From Unio delphinus (taxonomy: Eukaryota; Mollusca; Bivalvia; Unionida; Unionidae), in NCBI GenBank assembly GCA_029339505.1, contig JAQISU010000171.1:1585501-1649500 (forward strand): a DNA stretch of 64,000 bases, written 5' to 3'. Below the pieces are notes generated by a model. That model was not told where the DNA came from and made no database searches. It was given only the letters and a program-made list of their open reading frames with translations. Positions 3,234-26,652 of this stretch are shown here, one piece after another. A program made the position numbers and the translations under genes. The number at the start of each line of letters is the position of its first letter. Position 1 is the stretch's first letter.

Positions 3234-3510
3234 AGCAGCAGAGAGGGTGAGCCGGACAACATTTTTAGACAAGTTTTCACTGAAATCAGGCTTAAAAACA
3301 ATGAAACCAATGACATCAGGCCCCAAATGTGTGTGAGAATCTGATATCGTTTCATGGATTTGGTCCAAAAAAAAAATATGAAAAAATCAATGAAATTAAT
3401 GAAATCCTCCATCGATTTTTGGGAAAAAGGGATTACAACGTCGTTGTCACTCACCCCTTTTGCTATGGGTTAACCGAATATTTGATCCAGTCCGATACGA
3501 TATCGTGTTC
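3234..3510. repeat. Left terminal inverted repeat of the large element
   Basis: It begins AGCAGCAGAGAGGGTGA and matches the reverse complement of 17961-18238 through 'gatatcgtgttc' with a few indels in A/T runs. The inner border contains an inverted, decayed copy of the tip (tcactcaccccttttgct near 3448-3465), so each repeat could fold on itself. It also contains the last codons of the ATPase gene. Confidence 0.92.
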
Positions 3511-4141
3511 GAGGGTCATGTAAATTTATTGTTACAAATCCGTGTGGGGTAGACTGAGCATGACTAAAGAAATTTCTAAATTGATTGAAATCCATATCGG
3601 AGCACCATGTCTGCAAAATATTTCGTAGCGTATGTGTATCAACGCCGTTAAATACACACAACACATTACAATTATCGCGAATCACTTTTGGGATTTGTGT
3701 GTAGCGTTGAGTGACATAGATCACGTCCGTGTTTTTATGCCTGCCTCGGGAAAATATTCTAGCAGGATTTTTTTGTTTATCTAACATGACATCATCGTAT
3801 ACAACTAAATTGTTGATACTTCCATCTAGGTCATTCACGGATGGCGCCTCGTCAATATCGGTTATAAATTCAATAACATCCTCGCCAGCAATCTCTGAAG
3901 CGTTTTCATTAAAATCTTTTAGCACTTCATAGCATCGTTGATCATCTACGCTAGGGGCAATTAAATACAACTTATCCCACTTCATCCATCTCATTATTAA
4001 ATTGAGCAACAATTGCGTTTTACCGGATCCAGATGGCCCGATTATAATTGCGCGGATAGAGTTTGGTAGCGCTGCATGATGCTTCACTGGTTCTCTTGTT
4101 TTAGTCGCTGAAAAATCAATTATATTCATATCTCTATACAT
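3470..4141 (-). CDS. Genome-packaging ATPase (FtsK/HerA type)
   Basis: This 223-residue protein is expected to power DNA packaging into the capsid. The Walker A motif GPSGSGKT lies at residues 35-42, the Walker B strand NLVVYDD at 111-117, and a downstream YVTQRY with a likely sensor glutamine at 145. Size and motifs fit the A32/FtsK-like ATPases of Polintons and adintoviruses. It runs leftward from a divergent pair with the PLA2 gene; only 5 bp separate the two ATGs. A second ATG is at codon 5. The last 14 or so codons lie inside the left terminal repeat, and the right repeat carries the same coding end. The second element (25514-26185) encodes a full-length relative with about 23 differences in 223 residues. 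No breaks are seen. Confidence 0.93.
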   Translation of the reverse strand: MYRDMNIIDFSATKTREPVKHHAALPNSIRAIIIGPSGSGKTQLLLNLIMRWMKWDKLYLIAPSVDDQRCYEVLKDFNENASEIAGEDVIEFITDIDEAPSVNDLDGSINNLVVYDDVMLDKQKNPARIFSRGRHKNTDVIYVTQRYTQIPKVIRDNCNVLCVFNGVDTHTLRNILQTWCSDMDFNQFRNFFSHAQSTPHGFVTINLHDPRTRYRIGLDQIFG

Positions 4142-4146
4142 AAATT
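4142..4146. promoter_or_regulatory. Five-base spacer between divergent start codons
   Basis: The ATPase (leftward, first base 4141) and the zinc-ribbon/PLA2 gene (rightward, first base 4147) start 5 bp apart. The same arrangement is kept in the second element (26185/26191). Any core promoter for either gene must lie largely in the other's coding sequence. An AT-rich 'tctctatacataaatt' spans the junction. Confidence 0.6.
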
Positions 4147-4676
4147 ATGGATCTATATTGCGTGAAGTGTAAGGCGCGTACTGGCACAGATGACTTGACG
4201 ACGATTACAACTAAAAATAACCGATCAGCGCTTTCTGGTAAATGCGTACAGTGTAGTACAAAGAAATTTAGATTTGTTTCTAAACCCAAGGAACCCAAGG
4301 AACCTTTAAAAAAAAACAAGGAGGTGATATCGATGCCAAATTAGCAAAACTCCCTGGAACCCCATGGGGGAAATACCCCGGAGAAAAACACCTTCCAGGG
4401 TATAGTTATTGTGGACCGGGAACAAGACTTGATATCAGACTCAATGATCAAAATCAGCCCCGACCCGGTGAGGAACCAATAAACGCTATTGATAAGGCCT
4501 GTCACCTTCATGATGTTGCTTATAAAAGCAGCAATTTGCAACACAGGCATCTAGCAGATGTGAAATTAATTCATGCGTTGAATTCTATCACTGATAAATC
4601 CTTCAAAGAAAAATTGGCTTCCTTTTTGATAAAATCGGCAATGAAAAGCAAATTGATGTTAGGTGCTGGTAATTAA
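4147..4676 (+). pseudogene. Zinc-ribbon plus phospholipase A2 protein, frameshifted
   Basis: The first part has a C-x2-C ... C-x2-C zinc-ribbon pattern (YCVKC, then CVQC), like the small DUF5679-type domain seen in large DNA viruses. The second part, in another frame after about 4316, has a parvovirus-like PLA2 signature: calcium loop YCGPGT and catalytic CHLHDVAY. PLA2 domains in virions help membrane passage during entry; that role is inferred here from the family. The break is at a run of 9 A (4308-4316), where the second element has 10 A and an open frame. The downstream frame stays open to TAA at 4674-4676, just before the integrase ATG. The break is either a real mutation or a homopolymer error. 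The first open piece alone is 65 codons. Confidence 0.8.
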
Positions 4677-4683
4677 TAACAAC

Positions 4684-5634
4684 ATGGAATCTATTTATTA
4701 TTCCCCAAGAGGATACTGGAAGGGTAACGCTGCAATCAGTAAACTCGCTAGCGCCGCAAAAGTGAAAAAAACCACTGCGGCTCATTGGTTATCCAAACAG
4801 GCACTATGGCAAATTTATCTACCACCGCCTAAACAAATTCAATTCTCGCATTTTGATGTAACCGGACCCAATGAAGTTCATCAAGCTGATTTATTGTTTT
4901 TACCACATGACAACGGTTACAAATACGCGCTAACCGTAGTTGACGTTGCGAGTCGATACAAACAAGCAGAACCGCTAAAAACAAAATCATCACCTGAAGT
5001 GGCTTCTGCATTTGAAAGGATTTATCGAAGGAGTCCTCTGCACTGGCCAAATCTGTTACAAGTTGATCCGGGCAAGGAATTTCAGGGTGCAGTGTTATCT
5101 ACAATGAAATATCACAATGTCGCTATCAGACGAGGGCATACTGCACTGCATCGTGATCAGGCCATTGTAGAACGATTTAATCGGATTCTTGCTGAACGGT
5201 TATTTGGATATCAATACGCAAAAGAATTCATCCAAGAAAAAAGATCCCGTGAATGGGTTAAGAGATTACCAGGTGTAGTTACCGCACTGAATAACGAGAT
5301 TACTAGAACCATCAACATGAAACCTATCAACGCGATTAAAAAGAAGTCAATACCTGAAAAACCACAAAAAGATTTTAGCGTTTCCCAACCAATTCTTGGT
5401 AGTAATGTCATTGTGAGGTATTTATATGAACCAGGAGAGCTTGAGGGTGGCACAAAAAGGGCTACTGATCCTATTTGCAGTGTTACTGCACATAAGATAT
5501 CTAGTATAACACGATCAACTGGTAGACCTCCAATCTATAAATTGGATTCAACTGCCCCTCAGCGGGGATTTACACGCGAACAACTCCAAGTGATTCCTGA
5601 TGATACTCAATTACCACCGCGGGGTCTTAACTAG
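4684..5634 (+). CDS. Retroviral-type integrase (DDE, rve fold)
   Basis: This enzyme would join element ends to target DNA and create the 5-bp duplication. The catalytic triad is visible in the contexts QADLLF, QVDPGKEF and AIVERF. The last two acidic residues are 35 positions apart, as in the D,D-35-E family. The N-terminal part (GYWKGNAAISKLASAAKV) resembles a small helix-turn-helix/zinc-binding-like lead-in, and the C-terminal ~80 residues are basic. I chose the ATG at 4684 because the open frame to its left has only a GTG start at 4663 and overlaps the preceding gene. This gives 316 residues. It ends convergently, overlapping the HNH end of the leftward gene by 8 bp. No breaks are seen. 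Confidence 0.92.
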   Translation: MESIYYSPRGYWKGNAAISKLASAAKVKKTTAAHWLSKQALWQIYLPPPKQIQFSHFDVTGPNEVHQADLLFLPHDNGYKYALTVVDVASRYKQAEPLKTKSSPEVASAFERIYRRSPLHWPNLLQVDPGKEFQGAVLSTMKYHNVAIRRGHTALHRDQAIVERFNRILAERLFGYQYAKEFIQEKRSREWVKRLPGVVTALNNEITRTINMKPINAIKKKSIPEKPQKDFSVSQPILGSNVIVRYLYEPGELEGGTKRATDPICSVTAHKISSITRSTGRPPIYKLDSTAPQRGFTREQLQVIPDDTQLPPRGLN

Positions 5635-5851
5635 CGCCGTTGCGTCTATTGCACTCAAGACAAGTCAACATCACATTATTTCTGACATGACCGAGATTGT
5701 TATTTTTTCTGTCTACGGTGAATTGGCGAGGATCCTTATCCGAATACTGCCAACGCATTATACAATTGCAACTTGCGCAGTGATTATTCTGTTGTTGCTT
5801 CAGAGTAATTATTAATTCAGCATCAATATCAAATTCTCGTTGTTTTTTTTT
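5627..5851 (-). pseudogene. HNH / endonuclease VII-like C-terminal domain (piece 4)
   Basis: In the frame next to piece 3, beginning at the 9-T run (5843-5851), about 74 codons run open to TAA at 5627-5629. The residues show CASCNC, TVDRKNNNLGHVRNN and CLECNRR: a C-x2-C, a D-R-x-N-N-x2-G-H-x3-N core and a C-x2-C-N. This is the layout of zinc-bound HNH nucleases of the recombination endonuclease VII type. There is no ATG, so it is a domain of the upstream gene and not a separate protein. Its stop overlaps the integrase stop codon region by 8 bp, which fits tight viral packing. A resolvase role on branched replication intermediates is inferred. Confidence 0.7.
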
Positions 5852-6261
5852 GTCTTGTTGTTTGTAACCGGAGAGTTTTTTTTATCAATAATATCATCTA
5901 TTGTGGTGTCATTATCATCGCCAATGATTTCATCATCGCCTGACTCTGTCAGGACAATTCTTCGAAGTTGATTTATTTTTCGTACTCTGGATACTGAAAG
6001 ATAGACTAAATTCGACCATTCTATGCGATTATCTACCATCCAAACAATTGTATCCGATATAGTCAATCCCTGTGAAGAGTGTATTGTTGCTGCATAACCT
6101 AGCGTCCATGGGGATTTATTAGCACGCAATGCATCTTCAACGACATTGATATCAACCAGCACAATATCATTTAATACGAGAATCTGCTTTTCACTCTGTC
6201 CTGAAATATCAACTTCGATGTTCTGTTTTCGTGTATCCGATGGCCTATAACAGAGGGGCAC
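5812..6261 (-). CDS. SF1 helicase C-terminal motifs (piece 3)
   Basis: This 149-residue piece carries helicase motif V (GYAATIHSSQGLTI) and motif VI (NLVYLSVSRVRKINQL), which complete the superfamily 1 helicase begun in the previous piece. Its first Met is internal. An acidic, asparagine-rich linker (GDDEIIGDDNDTTIDDIIDKK) follows. The frame closes with TAA at 5812-5814 after a run of nine A (coding sense). The neighbouring frame continues from that run into an HNH domain. Confidence 0.82.
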   Translation of the reverse strand: MPLCYRPSDTRKQNIEVDISGQSEKQILVLNDIVLVDINVVEDALRANKSPWTLGYAATIHSSQGLTISDTIVWMVDNRIEWSNLVYLSVSRVRKINQLRRIVLTESGDDEIIGDDNDTTIDDIIDKKNSPVTNNKTKKNNENLILMLN

Positions 6262-7655
6262 TGGAAGTGTTGCAAATTTTGTTTATGCAATTCAAATAAC
6301 TTCATCTGAAGTGTGTCCCTGACTATTTTTCTACTTGCAATGATTAAATCATTTGGTCTCCACGCTTCCCAAAACTCATTCATGGGAGTTTCCGAAATTA
6401 TTTCACGGGTTATTTCACACTGGATTCTATCCGGTTGTAATCTAATTAGTTTCTTCAATTCTTTTAATTCATTATCAAGTGATCTATGATCGGTATCAAT
6501 TTCTTCATAATAGTCTACAAAACCCTTTAGCCATTCATGGGGAGATGCACCGACAAACGGTGGTGGTTGCCCGTGATCACCGCACATGACGACGTTTGTA
6601 TTCTTCAATAACAACCACTCAAGAAATATTTTTAAGACATCTTCGGATACTGTGTCTATTTCATCCCACATGATGAATTCAGGAATAAATTTCTCTCCCA
6701 TGCGCTCAGGAGTCCATTTATCTCCCTTCCATCGGAAAAAGCTGTGATAAGTGCAGGCATTTACCCCTCTCTGTATCATTTCTCTTGCAAGTCTGTGAGT
6801 CGGTGTTAGTACAATCATGTTTGGATTGGAAACACGAAATAACTCAATTGCCCGGGTTGTTTTTCCTGACCCACCACAGCCGTTTAAATAAACTGTTTTA
6901 TACAGGCATATTGGATCAGAAATCGGTGGTGCACTAGAAAATTCTGAACACTGATTGCTTTCTAAGTAATTATTTTCAATGGTAACATCTGCTGATGGAA
7001 TATAATCATGAATCATTTCTTTCTTAATTCTCCATGATCCCCATTTCTCGTTGCCAGTAGCCTTAAAATCAGCCATTTTGCTATTTACGTAAAATGAATC
7101 AGTAGCAACTCTAACTGCGGTGGTAGGAAATCTATTGATCATTGAAAACAGATTGATAGAAGCATAACCGAGCATAGAAGCTCTCAAATGTGTGTACTGC
7201 GGATGGTATCCATCATTGTAGGTAACAATTGTACCCAATTTGGTTCCATCGGACATAAATGCGTCCTTACGATTGACATATAGGCCCTTATTCGTTAAAT
7301 CCGTGATTACAAAATCGTATTCAGCATTGTCTATAATCAATCGTGAAGAATATTTCGTATTATCATCTTTGCCACCTTGGGTAAATTTACCGATTATTCT
7401 TCGTCCAAGATTTTTTGCTTCATTGTTTCTGATTTCAAATAACTGTTGGGACCAATCCATGATTTGTTGTTCATTAAAATCAGGAAACAGTTTTCGCTCT
7501 TCGCTAATTATTTTTTCTAGATCAGGTTGTGGTAACCAGACTGATTTCTGTGCTCGATAGGATATAATTGCTTCACTGACAATTAATGATTTTAACATCT
7601 TACAATCAAGCATATACCGTAATAACACTATTGGCATCCAGTGTTTTTCAGACAT
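6171..7655 (-). CDS. PolB palm C-terminal half fused to SF1 helicase (piece 2)
   Basis: Residues ~80-95 (KNLGRRIIGKFTQGG) are the likely polymerase motif B region. VRVATDSFYV at ~182-190 is motif C, with alanine where the first aspartate of DTDS is usual. A superfamily 1 (RecD/Pif1-like) helicase follows without a break: Walker A NGCGGSGKTT at ~258-267, LTPTHRLA at ~283, Walker B MWDEID at ~329-334, motif III GDHGQPPP at ~359-366, and TDHRS at ~388. The fusion is within one open frame, so it is not an artefact of frame repair. The piece begins with an internal Met created by the frame break, not a true start. It ends at a second break near 6262. Confidence 0.85.
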   Translation of the reverse strand: MSEKHWMPIVLLRYMLDCKMLKSLIVSEAIISYRAQKSVWLPQPDLEKIISEERKLFPDFNEQQIMDWSQQLFEIRNNEAKNLGRRIIGKFTQGGKDDNTKYSSRLIIDNAEYDFVITDLTNKGLYVNRKDAFMSDGTKLGTIVTYNDGYHPQYTHLRASMLGYASINLFSMINRFPTTAVRVATDSFYVNSKMADFKATGNEKWGSWRIKKEMIHDYIPSADVTIENNYLESNQCSEFSSAPPISDPICLYKTVYLNGCGGSGKTTRAIELFRVSNPNMIVLTPTHRLAREMIQRGVNACTYHSFFRWKGDKWTPERMGEKFIPEFIMWDEIDTVSEDVLKIFLEWLLLKNTNVVMCGDHGQPPPFVGASPHEWLKGFVDYYEEIDTDHRSLDNELKELKKLIRLQPDRIQCEITREIISETPMNEFWEAWRPNDLIIASRKIVRDTLQMKLFELHKQNLQHFQCPSVIGHRIHENRTSKLIFQDRVKSRFSY

Positions 7656-9472
7656 GTGTTTACCAATCCAAGGTAACTACACGGATGAAGTCCTGTAGCC
7701 ATTTCAAATGATACTACACAAGCGAATCCGGTTAAATCTAAATCAGGAAGTGGTCCATTAATAGCAACACGGGTCATTTCGTGTGTGGGGTGTCCAAATC
7801 GTTTGAAATATTTCTCGCATTCTCCATACCCAAGAAAACTTCCTGGATAACACGCAATCATATCAACTGAAATAACGGTATCAGCGGTGTATTTTGTGTT
7901 CCATAATCCGCCGTGGCTGTATTCAAGACAGGACAATTTGACATCTGATAAAAACTCACTTCGTGTTGGTTTCCACGCGTTTTTCTTTCTAGCAAAATGT
8001 GCTGCAATGGATGGTACTGTAAAACAGTTTGCTAATAATTGATCGTTGTCTTCTCCGTCCCCAGAAAACTCACTAGCAAGTTGTTTCATTTGATTCTGCA
8101 GCTCTTCAGTACGGTATAATTCTCCGTTAGGCCTTACAAACTGATCAAATCTACATTCTTCGTCTGAAGTACTATGAAATAGCCACACTGACACAGGATC
8201 GTTTTTACTCAAATGGTAAATAGCATCAAATAATTTCTGCTCTGAAAAAAACTCTTCGGTTTGGGATAGATATCTTACGGTTCTATCCCGTGGGGATATT
8301 GTTACTGCAGATGACCACGCGTGTGCGTTATGATCAATAATTTCAATGGGGTTTCCTTTTTTTGATTGATATTTCGGTTCTTTTAATACTTCACCGGTGA
8401 TTGTCCTTACCGATATTGGAAATCTCAATGATGTTTCTAATTTAGTTATATCCTGAATTGTTGCTCCATGCTCTTTTACCGTGAACTCCCACTCGGTTAT
8501 TTTTTTTCGTCTTAGATCAGTTAGTTTATTTCCCCGGGACGCATTTGTGAAGTGTTCTATTATTCGTTCTGCTACACAATTGAGCCCTGTCGAATATTTC
8601 ATGGGTGCTAGTTTTGAAATATCAGGTTTTTCATTGAGCGGATAGATCCCGTAAACAACTGCTGTGACAGGATAAGATCTTTCGTAGTAGGGTTTATCAA
8701 TTCCAGTCAAAATTCCCGGTTTTGAATCCTGATTCACGGTGACAGTTTTTTTGCCCCTGAGAATGGGTTCAAATTTATCCCTAATAATCCATTTGCCATC
8801 CTCACGGATAATGAATTTGATTCGGAAAAAATGACTTTTTTCCCCAATACGTGAAATGATCACTGCTGCTTCTTCATCATTCATGGTAGCGTCAACAACA
8901 CCATCAATTCGAAATGTTGACCAACAATAAGATGCTCCATCACGCTTGAATTCATTAAAACAGTCTCTGATGGGTTTATCAAGAATTTTATTCTTGGGTG
9001 TATTAGAAACTATATCAAGATTGAATTGAGCATCCTTCCATGGTGATCTCATGTTTCCGTCTCTTGGACGTTTGTTACGTTTTTTGGGTCTATCGCGATT
9101 AAATCTAGGATTAATTTTCAATAATCTCTTAAACTCCTTCATATTTCCGTCTATTGGACGTTTGTTACGTTTTTTGGGTTTATCGATATTAAATTTAGGG
9201 TTAATTTTTAATAATCTCTTAAACTCTTTCATGTTTCCGTCTCTTGGACGTTTGTTACGTTTGTTTCTGTTTACTACACGTTTTTTGGGTCTATCGCGAT
9301 TAAATCTAGGATTGATTTTCAATAATCTCTTAAATTCTTTCATGTTTCCGTCTACTACACGTTTTTTGGGTCTATCGAGATTAAATCTAGGATTGATTTT
9401 CAATAATCTCTTGAACTCTCTGTCGGTATTGAATTTAGCATTTTTCGAAGTCAATCTCTTGAACTCCTTCAT
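7628..9472 (-). CDS. PolB, N-terminal half to motif A (piece 1)
   Basis: This 614-residue open piece starts at ATG 9472 just downstream of a TATATATAG sequence. Residues 1 to ~140 are five or so copies of a lysine/arginine-rich repeat (core KEFKRLLKINPRF). The middle (~150-500) is unlike proteins I can name and shows no clear exonuclease DxE motif. Near residue 537 the sequence SVDMIACYPG fits motif A of family B polymerases (D-x2-S-L-Y-P type). The frame ends 78 residues later, where the next piece takes over after a one-base slip near 7658. Protein-primed polymerases of this type copy linear viral DNA. No separate terminal-protein gene is evident, so the basic N-terminus may do that job (inference). 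Confidence 0.75.
   Translation of the reverse strand: MKEFKRLTSKNAKFNTDREFKRLLKINPRFNLDRPKKRVVDGNMKEFKRLLKINPRFNRDRPKKRVVNRNKRNKRPRDGNMKEFKRLLKINPKFNIDKPKKRNKRPIDGNMKEFKRLLKINPRFNRDRPKKRNKRPRDGNMRSPWKDAQFNLDIVSNTPKNKILDKPIRDCFNEFKRDGASYCWSTFRIDGVVDATMNDEEAAVIISRIGEKSHFFRIKFIIREDGKWIIRDKFEPILRGKKTVTVNQDSKPGILTGIDKPYYERSYPVTAVVYGIYPLNEKPDISKLAPMKYSTGLNCVAERIIEHFTNASRGNKLTDLRRKKITEWEFTVKEHGATIQDITKLETSLRFPISVRTITGEVLKEPKYQSKKGNPIEIIDHNAHAWSSAVTISPRDRTVRYLSQTEEFFSEQKLFDAIYHLSKNDPVSVWLFHSTSDEECRFDQFVRPNGELYRTEELQNQMKQLASEFSGDGEDNDQLLANCFTVPSIAAHFARKKNAWKPTRSEFLSDVKLSCLEYSHGGLWNTKYTADTVISVDMIACYPGSFLGYGECEKYFKRFGHPTHEMTRVAINGPLPDLDLTGFACVVSFEMATGLHPCSYLGLVNTCLKNTGCQ
9051..9472 (-). repeat. In-frame tandem repeats at the polymerase N-terminus
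   Basis: About five imperfect units (each roughly 80-95 bp, multiples of three) encode KEFKRLLKINPRF followed by RDRPKKR and variable NKRPRDGN spacers. The units differ in spacer length (VVDGN, VVNRNKRNKRP and others), which suggests expansion by slippage while staying in frame. The repeat is strongly basic. Confidence 0.9.
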
Positions 9473-9569
9473 GCTATATATAAAACAGGTGTCTAAATGA
9501 AAGATTTATGTATAATCAATCACTGCAAAATGGGTCAGTCATTGAATTAGACAAATAGTGTAGTATATA
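9473..9569. promoter_or_regulatory. Divergent intergenic region, replication gene / HNH gene
   Basis: These 97 bp separate the leftward polymerase gene from the rightward HNH gene. TATATA-like sequences stand directly before both ATGs: 'tatatatagc' before 9472 on the minus strand and 'gtagtatata' before 9570 on the plus strand. A bidirectional promoter is likely, but no established motif is claimed. Confidence 0.45.
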
Positions 9570-10058
9570 ATGACCCAAGAATTCAGACTACACCCAGTGA
9601 TTAAAAATTACGAAGCATCCAGTGATGGTGTTGTAAGAAACTGTAGACTGAAGAACCCAATTGGGTGGGATAATGGTATGGGGTATTTGGTGTTTAATGT
9701 TGGAAGGAAGACATTTCGCAATCATCGTTTCGTATTTGAATGTTTTCATGGATTGATCAAAGATGGTTTTGTTTTTGATCACATTGATTCTAATCCAAGG
9801 AACAATTCTTTATCCAATCTGCAAGCAATCACACAGAGTGAGAATTCCAAACGAGGAAGGACTGGCACTTGTTCAAAAGCGAGACCAGTGAAATCTTTGA
9901 ATACAACAACTAACGAAGAGAAAATATTTCAATCATTATATGAAGCCGGTAAGTATTTCAATATTTGTAGAACTTCAGTACGATTAGTTGCATCGGGAAT
10001 AACCAAAACGGCTATTTCAAAAAAGACGGGGCAAAAAGTTAAATTTAGTTATGTCTAA
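9570..10058 (+). CDS. HNH homing-type endonuclease
   Basis: This 162-residue protein has an N-terminal NUMOD4-like stretch (VIKNYEASSDGVVRN), then an HNH_3-type nuclease core: HRFVFECFHG, DHIDSNPRNNSLSNLQ. A C-terminal NUMOD1-like DNA-binding segment follows (PVKSLNTTTNEEKIFQSL, with a helix-turn-helix YEAGKYFNICRTSVRLV). This architecture is common in phage and giant-virus free-standing homing endonucleases that cut one strand or both at a specific site. The start ATG at 9570 directly follows TATATA. The stop overlaps the next ATG (TAATG). It probably acts as a selfish gene within the element or in competition between elements (inference). Intact. Confidence 0.88.
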   Translation: MTQEFRLHPVIKNYEASSDGVVRNCRLKNPIGWDNGMGYLVFNVGRKTFRNHRFVFECFHGLIKDGFVFDHIDSNPRNNSLSNLQAITQSENSKRGRTGTCSKARPVKSLNTTTNEEKIFQSLYEAGKYFNICRTSVRLVASGITKTAISKKTGQKVKFSYV

Positions 10059-10450
10059 TGCGTCATAATTTCCAATTAGAGATATGTCATTCTTATAGAA
10101 TAATGAATTCTGAAAACATGAATAGCATCATAGTTGAAATAGCAAAATTGAAAAATCAGGATATCAAACTATCAGATGGATTAAATCCTGATCAAATTGT
10201 GTCTGATTTTCAGGATATTGAATACGGAGTAAACAACAATAAATATATGCTACCCAAGAAATATGCACTCATCAAAAGAATTCAGAATTCTATTAAAGAC
10301 TCTCTTTCATTTTCCAGTGACATCAGTGTGTTCGTCCCGTTGTATACTATCGTAGAAGGAATACGAAAAGAATTAGGTAACGAATACGAATTGAAAAAAG
10401 AAGTCAACTCTAAAATTAGAAACCTACGAGCATTAATTCAGGAAAATTGA
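10058..10450 (+). CDS. Unknown protein, 130 residues
   Basis: The frame overlaps the HNH gene stop by one base (TAATG) and ends with a TGA that completes an AAAATTGA sequence at 10443-10450. A later ATG at 10103 would give 115 residues starting MNSENMNS and may be the real start. The predicted protein is mixed charged and mainly helical, with no membrane segment, cysteine cluster or nucleotide-binding motif. Tight linkage suggests co-transcription with the HNH gene. I do not recognise it. Confidence 0.55.
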   Translation: MRHNFQLEICHSYRIMNSENMNSIIVEIAKLKNQDIKLSDGLNPDQIVSDFQDIEYGVNNNKYMLPKKYALIKRIQNSIKDSLSFSSDISVFVPLYTIVEGIRKELGNEYELKKEVNSKIRNLRALIQEN

Positions 10451-10566
10451 TTACCCGACCATTGATTGCCCGACCATTTTATCATCGACCTTCATTTTTT
10501 TTAGCCGACCCTCAACGGGAATGTCAAAAATCGATGGACGATATGTCAGATTGATCAAAATAGAAT

Positions 10567-10617
10567 GGAGCAACTCACAGTATTATTTATTTTATATACA
10601 ATTATGTGACTTGCTCC
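10567..10617. promoter_or_regulatory. Hairpin/operator-like inverted repeat, copy 1
   Basis: Arms GGAGCAACTCACA (10567-10579) and TGTGACTTGCTCC (10605-10617) pair at 12 of 13 positions around a 25-nt AT-rich loop. The loop is identical in copy 2 while the arms differ in a compensating way. Confidence 0.7.
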
Positions 10618-10694
10618 ATCATTGATAGAAGCTGTTATAGGATGAAATAACACTTCCATGACCGTATCAAAAATCATCCGACATGTCAAAAAGT

Positions 10695-10745
10695 GGAGAA
10701 ACTGTCAGTATTATTTATTTTATATACAATTATGACACTTTTTCC
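10695..10745. promoter_or_regulatory. Hairpin/operator-like inverted repeat, copy 2
   Basis: Arms GGAGAAACTGTCA (10695-10707) and TGACACTTTTTCC (10733-10745) pair at 11 of 13 positions, plus one G:T. Relative to copy 1, three arm positions changed on both sides so that pairing is kept. Confidence 0.7.
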
Positions 10746-10810
10746 ATCAGTGATAGAAGGTGTCTCACGATGAAATAACACTTTTATGACTGTGTTAAAA
10801 ATCATCCGAC

Positions 10811-12074
10811 ATGTCAAGTGTTTTGCAATTGAAAAATAGTTTGCGATTTCAAATAATGGTCAATGAAGCATTAACAACCCGATTGGCTCGTGAACGACTG
10901 GATGCAATTAAGAGATTTGTACCAATTCGTGACTCTGTAAGAAATAAACTGCAACAACGACAGAGTTTACAAACTGATTTTGCTCTGGGGTTTGAAGAGT
11001 TGTTTAAACCAGTAACCACAGCAACAAAAGGGGTAGAGCGTGCTTTACTGGGAGATGGTCCCGAGACGGGAAAATCTGTTATTGGTGAACTCGAAAAAAT
11101 AGCAGCGAAAACTGAACAAACTGAAAAAACTGATCCGAAAAAAACGACTGTTTCTCTGTTGAATAAATTTACTGATCATGCTAAAATATTAATAAAAAAA
11201 CCTATTTTATTGAAATCAAAGGATTATCAAGCCTTTGGTAATTTTGCTGCTCAAAGTTATAATTCAAAAAAAGATTTTTTAAAGGACGAGTATAAAAATG
11301 ATAGAATATCAAGTAATGATTGGTTCGATTATATGTATAAACTAAATAAGGGGATTGGTCGTTTGAATAAGGATGAGATAGGATACAAGGAATTTCAAAG
11401 GGGAATTAGTTATTATAAAAGAGGACAAATAGAAGAGCGACAACGAGAATTAGAAGAACGACGTCAAACACCAACACGTAGACAAACAAGAAGACAAAAA
11501 AAACAACAACTACCACCTGATGATGATGATGATTTAGAAGAACGACGTCAAACACCAACACGTAGACAAACAAGAAGACAAAAAAAAACAACAACTACCA
11601 CCTGATGATGATGATGATTTAGAAGAACGACGTCAAACACCAACACGTAGACAAACAAGAAGACAAAAAAAACAACAACTACCACCTGATGATGATGATG
11701 ATTTAGAAGAACGACGTCAAACACCAACACGGAGACAAAAAAAACAAGAAGAACCTAATGATGATTATTTACAAGAAGAACCTAATGATGATTATTTACA
11801 AGAAACGAATTTAGAAAAACTAGATGAAGCAACTGGTTATAGCGGAAGTGGACTGCAAAATCCAAGGATTGGAAACACTTGTCCTGATAGTGTTATCAAT
11901 GATATATCACGATTAGATGTTCTTGTAGGAGGATTCCGAGCTGGAAATAACTCTCCAGAAATAATTAATGAAGCAGCTGATATCTGTAGACGGTTATTTG
12001 CCGGCGGTATCATGGATATCAAAACATATCGAGATTTCATTGACGAGTTAGCAAATGGGTATCATAGTGATTAA
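10811..12074 (+). pseudogene. Repeat-rich virion-associated candidate, frameshifted
   Basis: The first open part (10811-11605, 264 residues) is basic and helical, with a possible processing motif LLGDG near residue 80. Its C-terminal half is a tandem repeat: EERRQTPTRRQTRRQKK alternating with acidic DDDDD. The frame breaks at 11580-11588, a run of 9 A where the neighbouring repeat units have 8 A, and would resume to TAA at 12072-12074. The distal part has more acidic repeats (EEPNDDYLQ), then YSGSGLQNP and a compact helical end with conserved-looking C and R residues. The highly charged repeats could bind DNA inside the virion (inference). I do not recognise the family. Position between replication genes and capsid genes fits a structural protein. 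Confidence 0.65.
11435..11760 (+). repeat. Tandem coding repeats, ~93-94 bp units
   Basis: Units read gaagaacgacgtcaaacacc... and encode alternating Arg/Thr-rich and Asp-rich blocks. Three full units and a partial one are visible. The middle unit has one extra A, which causes the frameshift noted for the host gene. Confidence 0.85.
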
Positions 12075-12079
12075 ATAAC

Positions 12080-12098
12080 AATTGAAAACACTATTGTT
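12080..12098 (+). promoter_or_regulatory. AATTGAAAA motif with hairpin after a stop codon
   Basis: AATTGAAAA (12080-12088) follows the stop codon at 12072-12074 and lies inside a small inverted repeat AACAAT...ATTGTT (12077-12098). The same nine bases follow two other gene ends (14083 and 16079), each with a palindrome, so this is probably a shared 3'-end or promoter signal. Confidence 0.45.
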
Positions 12099-12230
12099 TT
12101 TATAATACTGATCGTACACTACAATCATGATAAACCAACCCTCGTCTATGTAGTTAATTCACGGTTTCCAGTTTATAAAGCATACTATGGAGATGGCCTC
12201 GGCAATACCATTTTAGGATTCTTTTCAAGA

Positions 12231-12608
12231 ATGGCCCCAAAAGTGATGCCGTTAGCTAAACAATTATCAATGAAAGCCATTGATGTTATTCGTGATAAGG
12301 GTATTAGTACTGTTGGAGATCTTGCCGGGAAAGCGTTTTCAACTGCGAAGGATAAAATAACATCATTAGTAAAATCACGAAAAAAGAAACCGTTACCGTC
12401 TACAGAAGAAATGCCTGCAAGTGTTAGTAAAATTATAAATAACGCAGTAGATGAAAAACTAGCGTCGATGGTAAATCAAGGGGACCAAAGCAATATTGCA
12501 AATATGATAGCGGGAAGTGGCTTTAAAAACCCACGTCGAAGAAATCCTATGGATTTTCACGCTAGCGTTTTTCACGATGAAAATCACGATTTAGACTCTG
12601 ATAAATAG
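12231..12608 (+). CDS. Minor capsid protein candidate (start uncertain)
   Basis: The open frame from ATG 12231 gives 125 residues. It is basic in the middle (KSRKKKP) and ends in an acidic tail, with IAGSGFKNPRRRN near residue 92, which resembles an adenain type II cleavage site. The same frame is open leftward to the stop at 12072, and the residues just before the ATG (YYGDGLGNTILGFFSR) look conserved. They resemble the glycine-rich N-terminus of Polinton minor capsid (penton/pVI-position) proteins as I know them. No in-frame ATG exists there; ATGs at 12127 and 12187 are in another frame. The true N-terminus may therefore be lost or reached by a frame change. It sits directly before the major capsid gene, as expected. 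Confidence 0.6.
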   Translation: MAPKVMPLAKQLSMKAIDVIRDKGISTVGDLAGKAFSTAKDKITSLVKSRKKKPLPSTEEMPASVSKIINNAVDEKLASMVNQGDQSNIANMIAGSGFKNPRRRNPMDFHASVFHDENHDLDSDK

Positions 12609-12614
12609 AATAAA

Positions 12615-14084
12615 ATGTTCAAAAGGTCATCTGATCCAGCATTTGATATGGATGCCCCAGTGCGTAAAGATGATTCTGTACGCGATTTTCAATTTTATTC
12701 TTATCACGCAATACAACCCGATCTCCGATCACGAATTGAACTTCAAGTTCATGATACCAGTAAATACTTTTTGCCTTGTGAAGCGTTTATTGAAGTAGAA
12801 GGAGAACTTGTAACAAATGATGATGCACATAATGATCCACCATATGACATTAGCCAAACTACCCGAGTTGGTTTTGTCAATAACGGTATTATGGCGTTAT
12901 TTGAAAGCGCTAGATATCTCATTGATGGAAAAGAAATTGAATCCATTGACCGTGAAGTTGATGTGGCCACAACAATCATAGGGTTAGCGAGATATTCTGA
13001 TGATTATACAAGATCAGCGGGTCCATCTATGATGTTTGCAAAGGATACCTCTGATAACGCTGATCACCTTCAATTCATTAAAGTGTTAACACCGCAAGTC
13101 ACTTCAGTTGCTAATCAAGGGGAAGCAGCTAATCCAGAACGTCGAACTAGACCCGGAGCTGAGTTTGATATTCTCGGAGGCGTTAATGGTAATCTCAATT
13201 TAGGATTTGCAACACGCGTAGCAATGTTGCATGGGCAGCGTAGACGATTTTCATGTGCAATTCCACTGCATCACATATTTGGATTCTGTAGAAACGTCCG
13301 AAAAGTTATTTATGGAGCCAAACACACAATAGCGCTTGTACGAAAGGGTTCTGATGATGATGCAATCTGGCGTAATGCTGGGGTTGCTCCCGGTAAAGTC
13401 ATTTTAACAAAACTATCATTGTGGATGCCAGTGTTAACTCCATCAATCACCGAAGAACAACGACTACTATCATTTATGGACCAAGGAGGAAAGTCGTTGT
13501 TAAGTTGGTTATCAGTGACCACGGATATTAAACAAGACAGTGTTGATGGTACATTCACATGGCACCTGGCATCAAAACAAGGTGTTTCAGCTCCACGTCA
13601 TATATTCGTAGCGTTACAGAATAATGCGCGAGTTGGTAATCAAGAACGAAGTCATATGATATTTGATCAGTTAGGTGTTAATGAAGTCTCGCTGAGAATA
13701 AACGGACAGCAGGAACCATCCGAGGATATACAACTTGATTACGGTCAGAATCATATTGCACGCGTGTATCATAACCTGTTGTCATTTATGGCACGTGATC
13801 TAAATGTGGATACCGGTTTGCAAATATCACAATATGATTTTAAAAATCTGTATCCGATTTATTACTTTTCATTGGAACATCTTGATTTGATGAGACAATC
13901 TGTCGTTGATATACACTTTAGAGCCGGTGTAACCCGTCCGACTGGTCCACCAGTTGGTGGGGTACCTCCTATCCTTATCCCGAATTATAGAGCGGTTGCT
14001 GTCATTCTCAGTGATAAATCAATGTTACTTGAAGGTGTTGGAGGAAGAATGAGAGTGGTAGATGCCCCAGTAGAAAACATGTAA
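12615..14084 (+). CDS. Major capsid protein, double jelly roll
   Basis: This 489-residue protein has the size and pattern of Polinton/adintovirus major capsid proteins: early FQFYSYHAIQPDLRSRIEL, IPLHHIFGFCRNVRKVIYG near residue 215-235, TKLSLWMPVLTPS near 265-280, SLRINGQQEPSEDIQLDY near 355, and YPIYYFSLEHLD near 415. These alternating beta-strand segments fit two jelly-roll domains that trimerise into hexon-like capsomers. It starts 6 bp after the preceding stop and ends with TAA at 14082-14084, followed by a perfect hairpin. No break is seen, so the capsid gene has stayed intact while several others carry indels. Proline-rich TRPTGPPVGGVPP near 440 is a likely surface loop. Confidence 0.88.
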   Translation: MFKRSSDPAFDMDAPVRKDDSVRDFQFYSYHAIQPDLRSRIELQVHDTSKYFLPCEAFIEVEGELVTNDDAHNDPPYDISQTTRVGFVNNGIMALFESARYLIDGKEIESIDREVDVATTIIGLARYSDDYTRSAGPSMMFAKDTSDNADHLQFIKVLTPQVTSVANQGEAANPERRTRPGAEFDILGGVNGNLNLGFATRVAMLHGQRRRFSCAIPLHHIFGFCRNVRKVIYGAKHTIALVRKGSDDDAIWRNAGVAPGKVILTKLSLWMPVLTPSITEEQRLLSFMDQGGKSLLSWLSVTTDIKQDSVDGTFTWHLASKQGVSAPRHIFVALQNNARVGNQERSHMIFDQLGVNEVSLRINGQQEPSEDIQLDYGQNHIARVYHNLLSFMARDLNVDTGLQISQYDFKNLYPIYYFSLEHLDLMRQSVVDIHFRAGVTRPTGPPVGGVPPILIPNYRAVAVILSDKSMLLEGVGGRMRVVDAPVENM

Positions 14085-14104
14085 TTGAAAATCCGAAGGA
14101 TTTT
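14083..14104 (+). terminator. AATTGAAAA plus perfect hairpin after the capsid gene
   Basis: AATTGAAAA (14083-14091) runs into a perfect 7-bp stem with 3-nt loop, AAAATCC-GAA-GGATTTT (14088-14104), one base after the capsid stop codon. It could define the mRNA 3' end, as hairpins do in some giant viruses and virophages, or act as a promoter element for the next gene at 14132. Confidence 0.45.
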
Positions 14105-14131
14105 TCCATTAGAATCAATCTATTATGTATA

Positions 14132-14554
14132 ATGTCATATAGTGTTATTAGTGTTGCGTTAACTCCTGGTCAAATCAAAAAATTGCAATCAGAATCGGCT
14201 AAAAAATGTGGAACCACAATCACGTTGAAACCTGATCAAATGACTGGTGGTGCAAATAAATTATCGCTGACAACTCGTCAAATAAAACATTTCAATGATG
14301 CACTTGCAGCCAAAAAAGGTGTTCAGATTACTCTTTCTGCGGCTGCTATTAAAAATATGATAAAATCAGGTGGTATATTTCCATTTTTAGCTGCAATACC
14401 AGCATTGATTGCAGCAGCAGCCCCAGCAGTGGCTAAAGCGGCTGCGTTAGGAGCCGTTGGTACTGCAGCAGGAATGGCACTTAAGAAGGCAAATGGGAAG
14501 GGATATAAAAAAAAGGGACGATCCGTTCACGGATTGGGTCTAAGACTACCATGA
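14132..14554 (+). CDS. Hydrophobic minor virion protein candidate, truncated by a stop
   Basis: This 140-residue protein begins with two copies of a ~35-residue repeat (LTPGQIKKL...ITLKPDQMTGG and LTTRQIKHF...ITLSAAAIKNM). A long alanine-rich hydrophobic stretch follows (GIFPFLAAIPALIAAAAP...), then a lysine/glycine tail ending VHGLGLRLP. The pattern suggests a membrane-active internal capsid protein, similar in logic to adenovirus pVI or pX; this is inference. The TGA at 14552-14554 sits exactly where sibling repeats have GGA. The same frame continues with two more GLRLPGT units to a TAA at 14669-14671, 12 bp before the protease ATG. The end is therefore probably shortened by a single substitution. 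Confidence 0.65.
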   Translation: MSYSVISVALTPGQIKKLQSESAKKCGTTITLKPDQMTGGANKLSLTTRQIKHFNDALAAKKGVQITLSAAAIKNMIKSGGIFPFLAAIPALIAAAAPAVAKAAALGAVGTAAGMALKKANGKGYKKKGRSVHGLGLRLP

Positions 14555-14671
14555 ACCCCGTATTCGTGGTACAGCGGAAAAGGTCTAAGACTACCAGGAA
14601 CCCGGTATTCATGGTACAGCGGGAGATCCGTTCACGGATCAGGCCTGAGACTACCAGGAACGGTTTATTAA
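14553..14671 (+). pseudogene. Lost C-terminal tail of the preceding gene (GLRLPGT repeats)
   Basis: In the frame of the 14132 gene, beyond its TGA, the DNA reads two units of YSWYSG plus GLRLPGT and stops with TAA at 14669-14671. Compared with these units the TGA is a GGA-to-TGA change. A reading in the alternative frame from ATG 14551 only extends the protease N-terminus artificially. Confidence 0.6.
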
Positions 14672-14682
14672 TTGAGGAACCT

Positions 14683-15114
14683 ATGGTTCCCATGTCCAAT
14701 TTTGATTTAATGGATGCGGCAAAAAAACTAGTGATTAAAAATTTCAGAGGTGTTTTTATGAAAGATCAATTACCACATCAACCAAACAAAACTGAAACAG
14801 GTATTATTAATCTCGATAACAGCACCGGACCTGGAACTCACTGGGTTGCATACGCTATTGATCCACGTGGGATTGTCTATTTTGATTCATATGGATTAGC
14901 CCCACCAAAAGAGTTTATGCGTTACATAAAACAATTTCCAATGAAGACTTGGTATTCTACGCTACCAACACAACAAATCAATGACCCACCAATATGCGGC
15001 AGTGAAGTATTAAATGTCCTTGACGCTATTTCAGCATCTAGAAAACCACCTCATATTGTCGTAAATGACTACACCAGCAATCGCTTTTTAGAGAGAGAAA
15101 GAGTTTTACAATAA
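14683..15114 (+). CDS. Adenain-type capsid maturation protease
   Basis: Adenovirus protease-like cysteine peptidases cleave minor virion proteins during maturation. The catalytic histidine is in GTHWVAY (residue ~53 from this start), the aspartate in YFDSYG (~68), the oxyanion glutamine in TQQIND (~97-98), and the cysteine in PICGSE (~105). Order and spacing match the family. I chose the ATG at 14683 (another at 14692) because the open frame can reach ATG 14551 only by reading the GLRLPGT repeat region of the upstream gene out of frame. This gives 143 residues, short for adenain (about 200) but with the core complete. The stop is 1 bp from the next gene. Candidate substrates carry x-x-G-x-G motifs in three neighbouring genes. 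Confidence 0.88.
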   Translation: MVPMSNFDLMDAAKKLVIKNFRGVFMKDQLPHQPNKTETGIINLDNSTGPGTHWVAYAIDPRGIVYFDSYGLAPPKEFMRYIKQFPMKTWYSTLPTQQINDPPICGSEVLNVLDAISASRKPPHIVVNDYTSNRFLERERVLQ

Positions 15115-15115
15115 C

Positions 15116-16063
15116 ATGATTGATATTTGGGGGAGATCTTTGAAACCCAAACCCGATGGCACTGCACCACCTGATTCTATCAAGGATGTAAAAAAAATAA
15201 TTAAAGATGAAATAGCTGAGACGTTGAACTTAACAAGTGTTGACCCCGGGGAAATAGTTGTATTTCAGGACAAACAGGGTAAATTGAAATCTAGTAATAT
15301 TTCTCTGGATGATATTTTAGTTAAACAACAAAACGCAATCGAGAACACCGTTGCGTTATTTTCCGATCAGGGTAAATTGAAATCTAGTAATATTTCTCTG
15401 GATGATATTTTAGTTAAACAACAAAACGCAATCGAGAACACCGTTGCGTTATTTTCCGATCAGGGTAAATTGAAACCAGGTGTACTTTTTTCGACGATTA
15501 CAGATCGATTAAAAATTCTCAACGATGAGTTAAACAATTCTGTGGTTGTACTAACAACACTTGAATGTAGAATTGAAGAAAACGGGAAACAGTTTACCGC
15601 ATTTCGTAGAAATATCATTGATAAATTTATTGGAACCCCGTTAGATAAAATTGAAATAAAACTCCCTGATATTAAAAAATCCATCGATGAGACGAAAACT
15701 TTCATCGAAGCCGTCAAAGGTGATTTTTCGAGGATGATAACAGTTATTGAAAAAACAAAAATTCCTCATGAGAAAACCAACAACGTGGTATATACAATCC
15801 AACACGGATCATTTGCGTGGACACCTACAAACAACAAATTAGATATCACTGCAACCGTCAAGGGTATTTATCGATTAACACTAGTAACACCATTGACTCA
15901 ATTTAATATATCATCGTCGAGTTCATCCGGGGTCAACAATACGATTTCAACGATCATCGACAAGGATACAAGTGAAAAGTTCACTATAACAACTACTGAT
16001 AAAAATTTGACTAAAACTTCGGTATCATGGTATGTGGAATTCGTAGCGGATTTAAGTAAATAA
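15116..16063 (+). CDS. Fibre- or spike-like virion candidate
   Basis: This 315-residue protein begins MIDIWGRSLKPKPDG one base after the protease stop. Residues ~20-120 are helical and contain an exactly duplicated 31-residue segment (KSSNISLDDILVKQQ...). The middle (~125-225) looks like a coiled coil. The last ~90 residues are rich in T, S and I (VVYTIQHGSFAWTPTNN ... SVSWYVEFVADLSK), suggesting a beta-sandwich head. A stalk with a C-terminal globular head would fit a vertex fibre (inference); no family is recognised with certainty. No breaks. It is followed by two AATTGAAA motifs and a palindrome. Confidence 0.6.
   Translation: MIDIWGRSLKPKPDGTAPPDSIKDVKKIIKDEIAETLNLTSVDPGEIVVFQDKQGKLKSSNISLDDILVKQQNAIENTVALFSDQGKLKSSNISLDDILVKQQNAIENTVALFSDQGKLKPGVLFSTITDRLKILNDELNNSVVVLTTLECRIEENGKQFTAFRRNIIDKFIGTPLDKIEIKLPDIKKSIDETKTFIEAVKGDFSRMITVIEKTKIPHEKTNNVVYTIQHGSFAWTPTNNKLDITATVKGIYRLTLVTPLTQFNISSSSSSGVNNTISTIIDKDTSEKFTITTTDKNLTKTSVSWYVEFVADLSK
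15275..15475 (+). repeat. Exact 93-bp tandem duplication within the fibre-like gene
   Basis: Bases 15275-15367 are repeated without a difference at 15368-15460, and the first 15 bases appear a third time at 15461-15475. The length is a multiple of three, so the frame is kept. The lack of divergence points to a very recent slippage or unequal exchange. Confidence 0.95.
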
Positions 16064-16111
16064 ATTGAAAGGATTTCACAATTGAAAACGCTAGCGTTGT
16101 TAAAATAAAAA
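16062..16111 (+). promoter_or_regulatory. Two AATTGAAA motifs and a 12-bp palindrome
   Basis: AAATTGAAAGG (16062-16072) begins within the stop codon, ACAATTGAAAAC lies at 16078-16089, and AACGCTAGCGTT (16087-16098) is a perfect palindrome. The next ATG follows at 16112. This matches the arrangement after the major capsid gene. Confidence 0.45.
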
Positions 16112-16759
16112 ATGATTTCATCATCGCAATATCGCTATGATCAGGTCAGAGAATATCAAACTAGACTCAAAACCCTGTCTGATGAGTATGCAATGAAAAT
16201 TAAAAAGTATCGCAGGAGAATTACCGCAATTGATGTTACTGTGTATTCAGTGAGTGGTGTAATCACCGGAGCCGGTATTATACTGTCTTCAGTGACAATG
16301 ATGGCTCCGATAGCTGTTCCAATTTGCATTTCTGCGGCAACAACAATCGCTGGAATTATTTCAATAATCACAAAAAAAATATCCTCATGCAGCCAACGGA
16401 AACTACAAGACTACATAATTCAATTTCATGTTGTGTCCACTGCATACTCGCAATTATCCTCATTGATATCGTCATCGCTCGATGATACAATTATATCAGA
16501 GAGTGAGTTTTCAGCGATGGTAGATATATATGATTCTGCGATGTCAAAATTAGAAATACAAAAACATGAGTATAATAACAATGACAACACAGATGGAATT
16601 ACTTCAACAAATAGTGGAGAACACAAACCCAGTACAAACAAGCATGATCTCAATAACCTCAACGAATCCAGAATTCAGTGTGAATTTCCCCTCTCCGGTC
16701 CCAGTGAAGGAGATAGCGCTAGCAAAATTACGAGTATACCACAGTTGGCCAAATATTAG
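16112..16759 (+). CDS. Membrane protein of the element, unknown
   Basis: This 215-residue protein has a basic helical N-terminus (YQTRLKTLSDEYAMKIKKYRRR), then two adjacent hydrophobic segments at ~40-65 and ~68-90 (VTVYSVSGVITGAGIILSSV and PIAVPICISAATTIAGIISI). A helical, serine-rich region follows with the pattern SLDDTIISESEFSAMVDIY. The arrangement resembles a family of two-helix membrane proteins I associate with invertebrate Polinton-like elements, but I cannot name it. The C-terminal ~65 residues are encoded by DNA that also starts the next gene in another frame. An internal virion membrane or host-membrane role is possible. Confidence 0.6.
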   Translation: MISSSQYRYDQVREYQTRLKTLSDEYAMKIKKYRRRITAIDVTVYSVSGVITGAGIILSSVTMMAPIAVPICISAATTIAGIISIITKKISSCSQRKLQDYIIQFHVVSTAYSQLSSLISSSLDDTIISESEFSAMVDIYDSAMSKLEIQKHEYNNNDNTDGITSTNSGEHKPSTNKHDLNNLNESRIQCEFPLSGPSEGDSASKITSIPQLAKY

Positions 16760-17933
16760 GTCAAAATCATTTGGTGGTCAACAACCCAATAATTCCTTGG
16801 TATTTGCAAATAAGAATAAACCAGACGGTACCCCAGACTGGAATGTTGTTTCCATACCAACCGGATCATACCAAATCGAACAAATCAATAATGAATTCGC
16901 GCGTAGAATAAAATCGATTACTGGAGTAGAGTCAAAAATAGCTATAACAGTTCATGAACCAACACTATCATCTGCCATTGAAATAAGCACAGAGGGTTAT
17001 GTCGTAGATATCTATCAAAGTTCTATTAGAACCGTACTAGGATGGCCTGAAATCCCACCCCGGGAAAAACCCGTTGATTTACCAGAACCAAAAAAATCTG
17101 ATTATGTCACAGACAGGATAAAATCTGATAATCCAGTAAAGAGTTATAGAGATTATGACAAATTGAATTTTTTTCTTAAAACGATAGATACCGTCACTAA
17201 TAAAAGATACCACACACTTCTACAGAGTAAAACCACTGAAAATTTCAGAGCGTTCAATAACGATATTTCGTTGTTGTTAATATCCCTTAAATCCGGTACT
17301 CTCACCCGAGACGAATTTATCAGCGTTGTAGAAACATGTAACAAAATCATCAATGACATGGAAACATTTCATTCACAAATTATTCAGGGTATATTAGATG
17401 ACGATATCTCCCTATCGAAAACAATATTTGCAACGAAGTATAATATACGCGTAGAAGATATCCCCACATTCAAACTACCAGGATATAATATCTTAGAACT
17501 ACAAAAATCTCTCAGTGACACCATCGATGTTGGTTTTAAAATAATTCATGATGCATGGAAAAAAGCAACATCACCGGAAATAAAAATCCTGACCCATAAT
17601 AATGACCCAGATGGTGGTGGCAGGCATATTGCTCCGTTCAATGTGAATATTTCAACGGTGATTGCGCTCAATTTAGTATGTGATGTGATCGAAGGAAGCT
17701 ATCAAATTAATCTAGAACGATCAAATCAAGCTCAGCAAGGATATATTTTGTATTCATTTGCACCAATAGCTCCTCCAGGGTTTTTAATAATTGAGTCCCC
17801 GGTGAATCCAGTCTATATGCGATGTCATAATAATTCATTAACCAGAATTAATTTAAAACTCACTGACCAGTCTAATAATCTGATTGATTTACAAGAGGAG
17901 GTTTTACAAATTAGTCTATTTGTGAAATCGTAG
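16566..17933 (+). CDS. Vertex (penton/receptor-binding) protein candidate
   Basis: This 455-residue protein starts inside the preceding gene, overlapping it by 194 bp in a different frame. The N-terminal domain has beta-rich segments (SIPTGSYQIEQINNEF, EISTEGYVVDIYQSS). The middle (~190-330) is helical. The C-terminal ~110 residues are beta-rich (LVCDVIEGSYQINL, PPGFLIIESPVNPVYMR, INLKLTDQSNNLIDLQEE). The repeated 'GSYQI' lead-ins and the C-terminal layout fit a jelly-roll type vertex protein of Polinton-like viruses; this is inference from pattern and position. It is the last gene before the right terminal repeat. No break is seen. Confidence 0.55.
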   Translation: MSIITMTTQMELLQQIVENTNPVQTSMISITSTNPEFSVNFPSPVPVKEIALAKLRVYHSWPNIRSKSFGGQQPNNSLVFANKNKPDGTPDWNVVSIPTGSYQIEQINNEFARRIKSITGVESKIAITVHEPTLSSAIEISTEGYVVDIYQSSIRTVLGWPEIPPREKPVDLPEPKKSDYVTDRIKSDNPVKSYRDYDKLNFFLKTIDTVTNKRYHTLLQSKTTENFRAFNNDISLLLISLKSGTLTRDEFISVVETCNKIINDMETFHSQIIQGILDDDISLSKTIFATKYNIRVEDIPTFKLPGYNILELQKSLSDTIDVGFKIIHDAWKKATSPEIKILTHNNDPDGGGRHIAPFNVNISTVIALNLVCDVIEGSYQINLERSNQAQQGYILYSFAPIAPPGFLIIESPVNPVYMRCHNNSLTRINLKLTDQSNNLIDLQEEVLQISLFVKS

Positions 17934-17960
17934 TGATTTTCGTTCCCCAGACAAGGTCTG

Positions 17961-18238
17961 GAACACGATATCGTATCGGACTGGATCAAATATTCGGTTA
18001 ACCCATAGCAAAAAGGGTGAGTGACAACGACGTTGTAATCCCTTTTTCCCAAAAAAATCGATGGAGGATTTCATTAATTTCATTGATTTTTTCATATTTT
18101 TTTTGGGACCTAATCCATGAAACGATATCAGATTCACACACACATTTGGGGCCTGATGTCATTGGTTTCATTGTTTTTAAGCCTGATTTCAGTGAAAACT
18201 TGTCTAAAAATGTTGTCCGGCTCACCCTCTCTGCTGCT
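17961..18238. repeat. Right terminal inverted repeat of the large element
   Basis: This is the reverse complement of 3234-3510 with a few indels in A/T runs and scattered substitutions. On the plus strand its inner edge reads the last codons of the packaging ATPase (TRYRIGLDQIFG then stop), although no ATPase gene precedes it here. Confidence 0.92.
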
Positions 18239-25485: not shown

Positions 25486-25513
25486 ATGGGTTAACAAAAA
25501 ATAATAAATGATT

Positions 25514-26185: not shown

Positions 26186-26190
26186 AAATT

Positions 26191-26639: not shown

Positions 26640-26652
<13 letters not shown>
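26191..26652 (+). pseudogene. Zinc-ribbon/PLA2 gene, 3'-truncated
   Basis: The frame is open through the zinc ribbon (YCMKC ... CATCG), a basic linker with 10 A at 26361-26370, and the PLA2 core (YCGPGT, CHLHDVAY). It then stops matching the element at about 26640 and reads into the GATA repeat, ending at the first stop. This copy shows that the zinc ribbon and PLA2 belong to one protein. The C-terminal ~35 residues seen in the large element are missing. Confidence 0.85.

What the first reader, a model, noticed from the sequence alone, without database searches (positions are those of the whole stretch)
5627..9472. PolB, SF1 helicase and HNH nuclease fused in one replication gene
Polymerase motif C and helicase Walker A are in the same uninterrupted frame (6171-7655), so the polymerase-helicase fusion is certain at sequence level. 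Helicase motifs V and VI and an HNH/endonuclease VII-like domain follow on the same strand with single-base frame changes and no intergenic space. The animal Polintons I know carry a stand-alone PolB. A three-activity replication protein would be a distinct lineage trait.
Basis: partly seen in the sequence, partly recalled or inferred. Interest (0 to 1): 0.86.

Follow-up and report, generated by a model that had tools for sequence, protein, structure and literature searches.

The report
Polinton polymerase-helicase-nuclease fusion gene
A virus-like transposon in what looks like an animal genome carries a broken copy of one large replication gene joining a DNA polymerase, a helicase and a DNA-cutting domain; unbroken relatives show the fusion is real, but the design was already known from related elements of single-celled organisms and giant-virus passengers.

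Summary
Window 3234-18238 is a Polinton with terminal repeats; on its minus strand, 9472-5627, lies one replication gene broken into four overlapping pieces. Searched apart, all four match the same unbroken protein records in the same order in 34 of 37 long homologues. Of 193 listed homologues, 68 reach 90 residues past helicase motif VI, and 66 of these carry the HNH domain. So the fusion is real in this lineage, not an accident of decay. Its architecture: vOTU-like protease, protein-primed PolB palm with no recognisable exonuclease site and with the first Asp of motif C lost, Pif1/RecD-like SF1 helicase, endonuclease VII/HNH domain. That is the published 'Tlr1-like helicase' (pPolB-S1H, some with C-terminal HNH) of polinton-like viruses and transpovirons (PMC11071308). 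It is a new member of a known kind. What I did not meet in print is its spread: freshwater mussel, sea slugs, a coral and Glomeromycotina fungi. The nuclease is nearly always present and co-varies with the helicase (r 0.81), which argues against a passing homing-nuclease invasion. The host was not identified, a tree with Tlr1 was not possible, and no activity was tested.

The parts
3234..18238 (.). Polinton-like element bounded by terminal inverted repeats (3234-3513 and 17958-18238, 97% identical), with a 5-bp direct repeat GGTCA just outside both ends
5627..9472 (-). Broken pPolB-S1H-HNH replication gene, four overlapping frames, first ATG at 9472
8987..9464 (-). Five tandem repeat copies coding a basic N-terminal motif (MKEFKRL..INPRFNRDRPKK type); by eye the motif occurs once in the four nearest relatives
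8315..8581 (-). vOTU-like protease domain, between its candidate catalytic Cys (NCVAERI, 8581-8561) and His (DHNAHAW, 8335-8315)
7838..7864 (-). Polymerase palm motif A (DMIACYPGS)
6171..7676 (-). Unbroken frame with palm B-like stretch (7184-7149), motif C RVATDSFY (7112-7089), S1H motif I (6881-6855), II (6674-6651), III (6584-6558)
5812..6282 (-). S1H motifs V (6087-6061) and VI (6003-5983)
5627..5881 (-). C-terminal HNH/endonuclease VII-like domain with two CxxC pairs and D-R in place of D-H
3470..4144 (-). Packaging ATPase (A32/FtsK type)
   Evidence: Pfam Pox_A32 E 6.7e-13
4284..4676 (+). Parvovirus-type phospholipase A2 gene
   Evidence: PF08398 E 1.9e-12
4663..5634 (+). Retrovirus-type integrase
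   Evidence: PF00665 E 3.6e-7, 30.8 bits against a cut-off of 32.6
12609..14084 (+). [quoted passage not shown]
   Evidence: PF21738 E 3.9e-18; mussel homologues
14509..15114 (+). Adenain-like protease, weak match
   Evidence: PF00770 E 0.0031, below cut-off

Best explanation
This is a decayed copy of the single replicase of a Polinton lineage found in animals: a Tlr1-like pPolB-S1H protein with a C-terminal endonuclease VII/HNH domain. Shown from sequence: one-record fusion in intact relatives, vOTU Cys/His, palm motifs, no conserved exonuclease carboxylate set, S1H motifs, HNH/EndoVII domain. Inferred, by analogy with pPolBs and Tlr1-like helicases: the N-terminal part serves as or holds a terminal protein and primes at the element's ends; the vOTU cuts it from the rest; the palm copies the DNA while the fused Pif1/RecD-like helicase unwinds, in place of the exonuclease-bearing design of canonical Polinton PolB. 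Most speculative: the HNH domain resolves or trims branched replication or recombination intermediates. The new copy is then packaged or integrated by other products of the element. The copy in the window, broken into four frames, cannot be read as the full protein.
Confidence: 0.85

Rival explanations
1. Independent fusion: a Polinton PolB of animals or fungi lost its exonuclease and gained an S1H and HNH on its own, converging on the Tlr1-like design.
For: Named hosts here are animals and fungi, whereas the Tlr1-like helicases named in the passages I read are from protist elements and transpovirons. An independent fusion with reversed order exists in Oxyrrhis (PMC12721341). No Tlr1 or transpoviron name appears among the rows listed, but most of those rows have no name and each list was cut at 120.
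Against: The same domain order, the same exonuclease loss, the same motif-C Asp loss and the same occasional C-terminal HNH agree with the published family.
Confidence: 0.2
2. The HNH is a selfish homing endonuclease that invaded the gene's end and has no part in replication.
For: PMC11071308 calls the C-terminal GIY-YIG and HNH domains of this family homing endonucleases and suggests intein invasions. A stand-alone HNH_3 gene with a weak NUMOD1 match sits next door at 9564-10058.
Against: Present in 66 of 68 records that reach far enough, at the same place, in named sea-slug, coral and fungal records among others, and co-varying with S1H. Its best PHROG match is endonuclease VII, while the neighbouring gene matches other HNH families best.
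Confidence: 0.25
3. Chance neighbours: separate decayed genes that happen to lie on one strand.
For: Three frame changes in the window; the coral relative annotated as two genes.
Against: The same order in single unbroken records, 34 of 37; 45 of 193 with all three signatures in one frame.
Confidence: 0.02

Closest known systems
Tlr1-like helicases / pPolB-S1H fusion proteins of polinton-like viruses, Tlr1 and transpovirons (PMC11071308)
   Same: vOTU upstream of palm, palm lacking exonuclease, first Asp of motif C changed, C-terminal S1H, in some PLVs a C-terminal HNH or GIY-YIG
   Different: Named hosts here include molluscs, a coral and Glomeromycotina; the HNH is nearly always present; terminal-protein fold not identified
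Canonical animal Polinton/Maverick/adintovirus pPolB
   Same: Same element layout (rve integrase, ATPase, DJR capsid protein, terminal repeats) and an OTU-like domain ahead of the palm
   Different: Those PolBs carry an exonuclease domain and no fused helicase (PMC11071308 and recall); here no exonuclease residue set and a fused S1H
Oxyrrhis marina OmPLV Helicase SF1-pPolB (PMC12721341)
   Same: SF1 helicase fused to pPolB
   Different: There the helicase is N-terminal and the exonuclease complete; here the order is reversed and no exonuclease site is seen
Phage endonuclease VII-like HNH proteins and HNH restriction enzyme PacI
   Same: CxxC pairs and D-R...N signature (endonuclease VII family E 2e-9; PacI only E 0.023)
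   Different: Stand-alone enzymes; here a terminal domain of a replicase

Membership tests
Tlr1-like pPolB-S1H fusion | Palm with motifs A, B, C and motif C lacking the first Asp | tested here: met
   Window DMIACYPGS and RVATDSFY; A, V or T at that position in 129 of 129 records where the pattern was found, of 193
Tlr1-like pPolB-S1H fusion | No 3'-5' exonuclease domain | tested here: met
   By residue conservation only: D332 and E395 (P0151 numbering) are the only columns at least 85% acidic between vOTU His and palm A, too few for four exonuclease carboxylates. The phi29 match starts at phi29 residue 55, so a remnant of the fold is possible
Tlr1-like pPolB-S1H fusion | vOTU domain with catalytic Cys and His before the palm | tested here: met
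Tlr1-like pPolB-S1H fusion | C-terminal superfamily 1 helicase in the same protein | tested here: met
Tlr1-like pPolB-S1H fusion | Terminal-protein domain between the N-terminus and vOTU | tested here: inconclusive
Tlr1-like pPolB-S1H fusion | Groups with Tlr1/transpoviron sequences in palm or S1H trees | not tested
   No named reference sequences were obtained
Polinton/Maverick element | Terminal inverted repeats and short target-site duplication | tested here: met
   About 281-bp repeats at 97%; 5-bp GGTCA on both sides, where 6 bp is the usual length as recalled
Polinton/Maverick element | rve integrase, packaging ATPase and DJR major capsid protein | tested here: met
   ATPase and capsid protein above Pfam cut-offs; integrase E 3.6e-7, slightly below its cut-off
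Polinton/Maverick element | Adenain/Ulp1-type cysteine protease | tested here: inconclusive
   PF00770 E 0.0031, below cut-off
Canonical animal Polinton pPolB | Exonuclease domain and no fused helicase | tested here: not met
HNH endonuclease | Catalytic D-H and N with zinc-binding CxxC pairs | tested here: inconclusive
   CxxC pairs, D and N conserved, but D-R not D-H; PHROG endonuclease VII E 2e-9; Pfam HNH below cut-off

The most novel reading that the evidence does not exclude
A widespread lineage of animal and fungal Polintons has abandoned the canonical exonuclease-bearing polymerase and replicates with one protein that carries out priming-protein release, copying, unwinding and, by a built-in endonuclease VII-type domain, branch resolution: a whole replisome and resolvase in one chain, inherited as a unit across molluscs, a coral and mycorrhizal fungi.
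Probability: 0.35. Interest if true: 0.65.

Novelty: new member of a known kind. Interest (0 to 1): 0.42.

Why it matters
It extends the pPolB-S1H replicase, described for protist polinton-like viruses and transpovirons, to molluscs, a coral and Glomeromycotina fungi, so the split between animal Polintons with a stand-alone PolB and protist elements with a helicase fusion would not follow host kingdoms. The nearly always present, co-varying endonuclease VII-type domain suggests a replication role rather than a passing homing element, and that can be tested with one purified protein.

Tried and rejected
Chance juxtaposition of separate genes: rejected. Sporadic homing invasion of the HNH within this lineage: disfavoured; not excluded for its first arrival. 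A second, canonical PolB elsewhere in the element: no other frame of at least 80 aa looked like one to me, and no Pfam PolB was found among the element frames scanned; not every frame was scanned.

Full report
What is there. The window holds a Polinton between terminal inverted repeats 3234-3513 and 17958-18238 (97% identical), with the same five bases, GGTCA, just outside both ends. [quoted passage not shown] On the minus strand, from 9472 down to 5627, lie four overlapping open frames of 625, 501, 156 and 84 residues.

The fusion is real. I searched each piece apart. A search with the 501-residue piece, which holds both polymerase motif C and helicase Walker A, gave 123 relatives, of which 120 were listed. 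A search with one intact relative, P0007, gave 164, of which 120 were listed. Together these lists hold 193 distinct records; 44 of them have 1000 residues or more, and 37 of those 44 went into my alignment A2. In 34 of the 37, all four window pieces match one protein record in the right order; the other three (P0163, P0167, P0185) lack a match to the last piece. The closest, P0162 (1168 residues, metagenomic), matches the pieces at 69, 68, 82 and 96% identity. A shorter metagenomic record, P0004, has helicase and HNH in one frame, at 80% identity over 48% of the query. Of the 193 records, 45 have motif C, Walker A and an HNH signature in one frame, among them P0144 of the sea slug Elysia crispata and the fungal P0158 and P0016; 149 of the 193 are shorter than 1000 residues. 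The records are protein predictions; whether some eukaryotic ones are spliced models was not checked, and the only related DNA locus that I could fetch, L001, is itself broken.

The nuclease belongs. Of the 193 records, 68 reach at least 90 residues beyond helicase motif VI, and 66 of those 68 carry the HNH domain; the two misses, P0044 and P0077, have unrelated-looking tails. The HNH profile was built from 12 sequences, most of them members of the set. Restricted to records listed by the search whose query lacked the HNH, it is 26 of 28. By name, the HNH is found in 10 of 16 fungal and 4 of 8 animal records that I checked; several of the misses are fragments that stop before it. Among the 34 of 37 rows with all regions filled, HNH distances follow S1H distances with r 0.81, vOTU with 0.78 and palm with 0.66; palm against S1H is 0.86; none of 5000 permutations was as high. 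This does not fit a homing nuclease that comes and goes within the lineage, though shared clade structure alone raises such correlations.

Who has it. Named records are from Sinanodonta woodiana (freshwater mussel), Elysia crispata and E. marginata (sea slugs), Desmophyllum pertusum (coral), several Glomeromycotina fungi, and MAGs of clam symbionts that probably contain host DNA; most records are unnamed. In a quick tree of 99 sequences, without bootstrap, the window piece groups with Sinanodonta and metagenomic records (SH-aLRT 97 for 5 rows, 100 for 9), though its letter make-up was flagged as unusual. Elysia copies lie in another clade. My 12 labelled fungal rows fall with three more, also named as fungi, in one 15-row clade. 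Sinanodonta's replicase P0001 and capsid protein P0205 are on contigs of the same length, 164,761,221, taken as the same chromosome. Potamilus, another freshwater mussel, has a related capsid protein (47% over 44%). The coral relative is annotated as two genes with consecutive numbers, P0191 and P0093, which speaks against the one-gene reading there or reflects a split model. The host of the window itself was not identified.

How it most likely works. By analogy with protein-primed PolBs and Tlr1-like helicases (PMC11071308, passages and section 10 read), the protein primes from a terminal protein, frees it by its vOTU, and copies with a palm helped by the fused helicase, which that paper suggests compensates for the missing exonuclease. 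The HNH domain's branch-resolving role is my inference.

What is known. PMC11071308 describes this architecture, TP-vOTU-palm-S1H, with C-terminal GIY-YIG or HNH in different PLVs, and predicts polymerase activity despite the motif-C change. PMC12721341 (passages read) describes a reversed SF1-pPolB fusion in a dinoflagellate and restates the Tlr1 case. [quoted passage not shown] PMC3671162, PMC4061559, PMC4642659, PMC10328495 and PMC11071296 were seen in passages. I met no report of this fusion in molluscs, corals or Glomeromycotina in the searches; most of the papers that those searches listed I saw only as title and start of abstract, and the library lacks Krupovic 2016 and Starrett 2021. 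So the kind is known; the host range and the nearly constant nuclease are the additions.

Noticed in passing
8987-9464: Five tandem copies, 81-111 nt apart, code a basic N-terminal motif, most units beginning with Met; by eye relatives P0162, P0160, P0163 and P0171 have one copy.
   Followed up: partly
9564-10058 (+): Stand-alone HNH_3 gene with a weak NUMOD1 match, homing-endonuclease type, directly upstream of the replicase gene on the other strand.
   Followed up: no
4284-4676 (+): Parvovirus-type phospholipase A2 gene in the Polinton.
   Followed up: no
25514-26652: Second, partial copy of the Polinton: ATPase 90% and phospholipase 91% identical at protein level; no replicase piece matched elsewhere in the window at E 1e-3.
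   Followed up: partly
22757-29527 and 55175-62704: Similar frames recur about 33 kb apart, suggesting a duplicated host segment.
   Followed up: no
11447-11753, 14530-14679, 10566-10817, 15275-15460: Several short tandem repeats within the element, one a perfect 93-nt duplication.
   Followed up: no
L001 (archaeal MAG contig JAADDH010000070.1): A broken relative of the replicase sits in a contig binned as Candidatus Diapherotrites, probably eukaryote DNA.
   Followed up: partly
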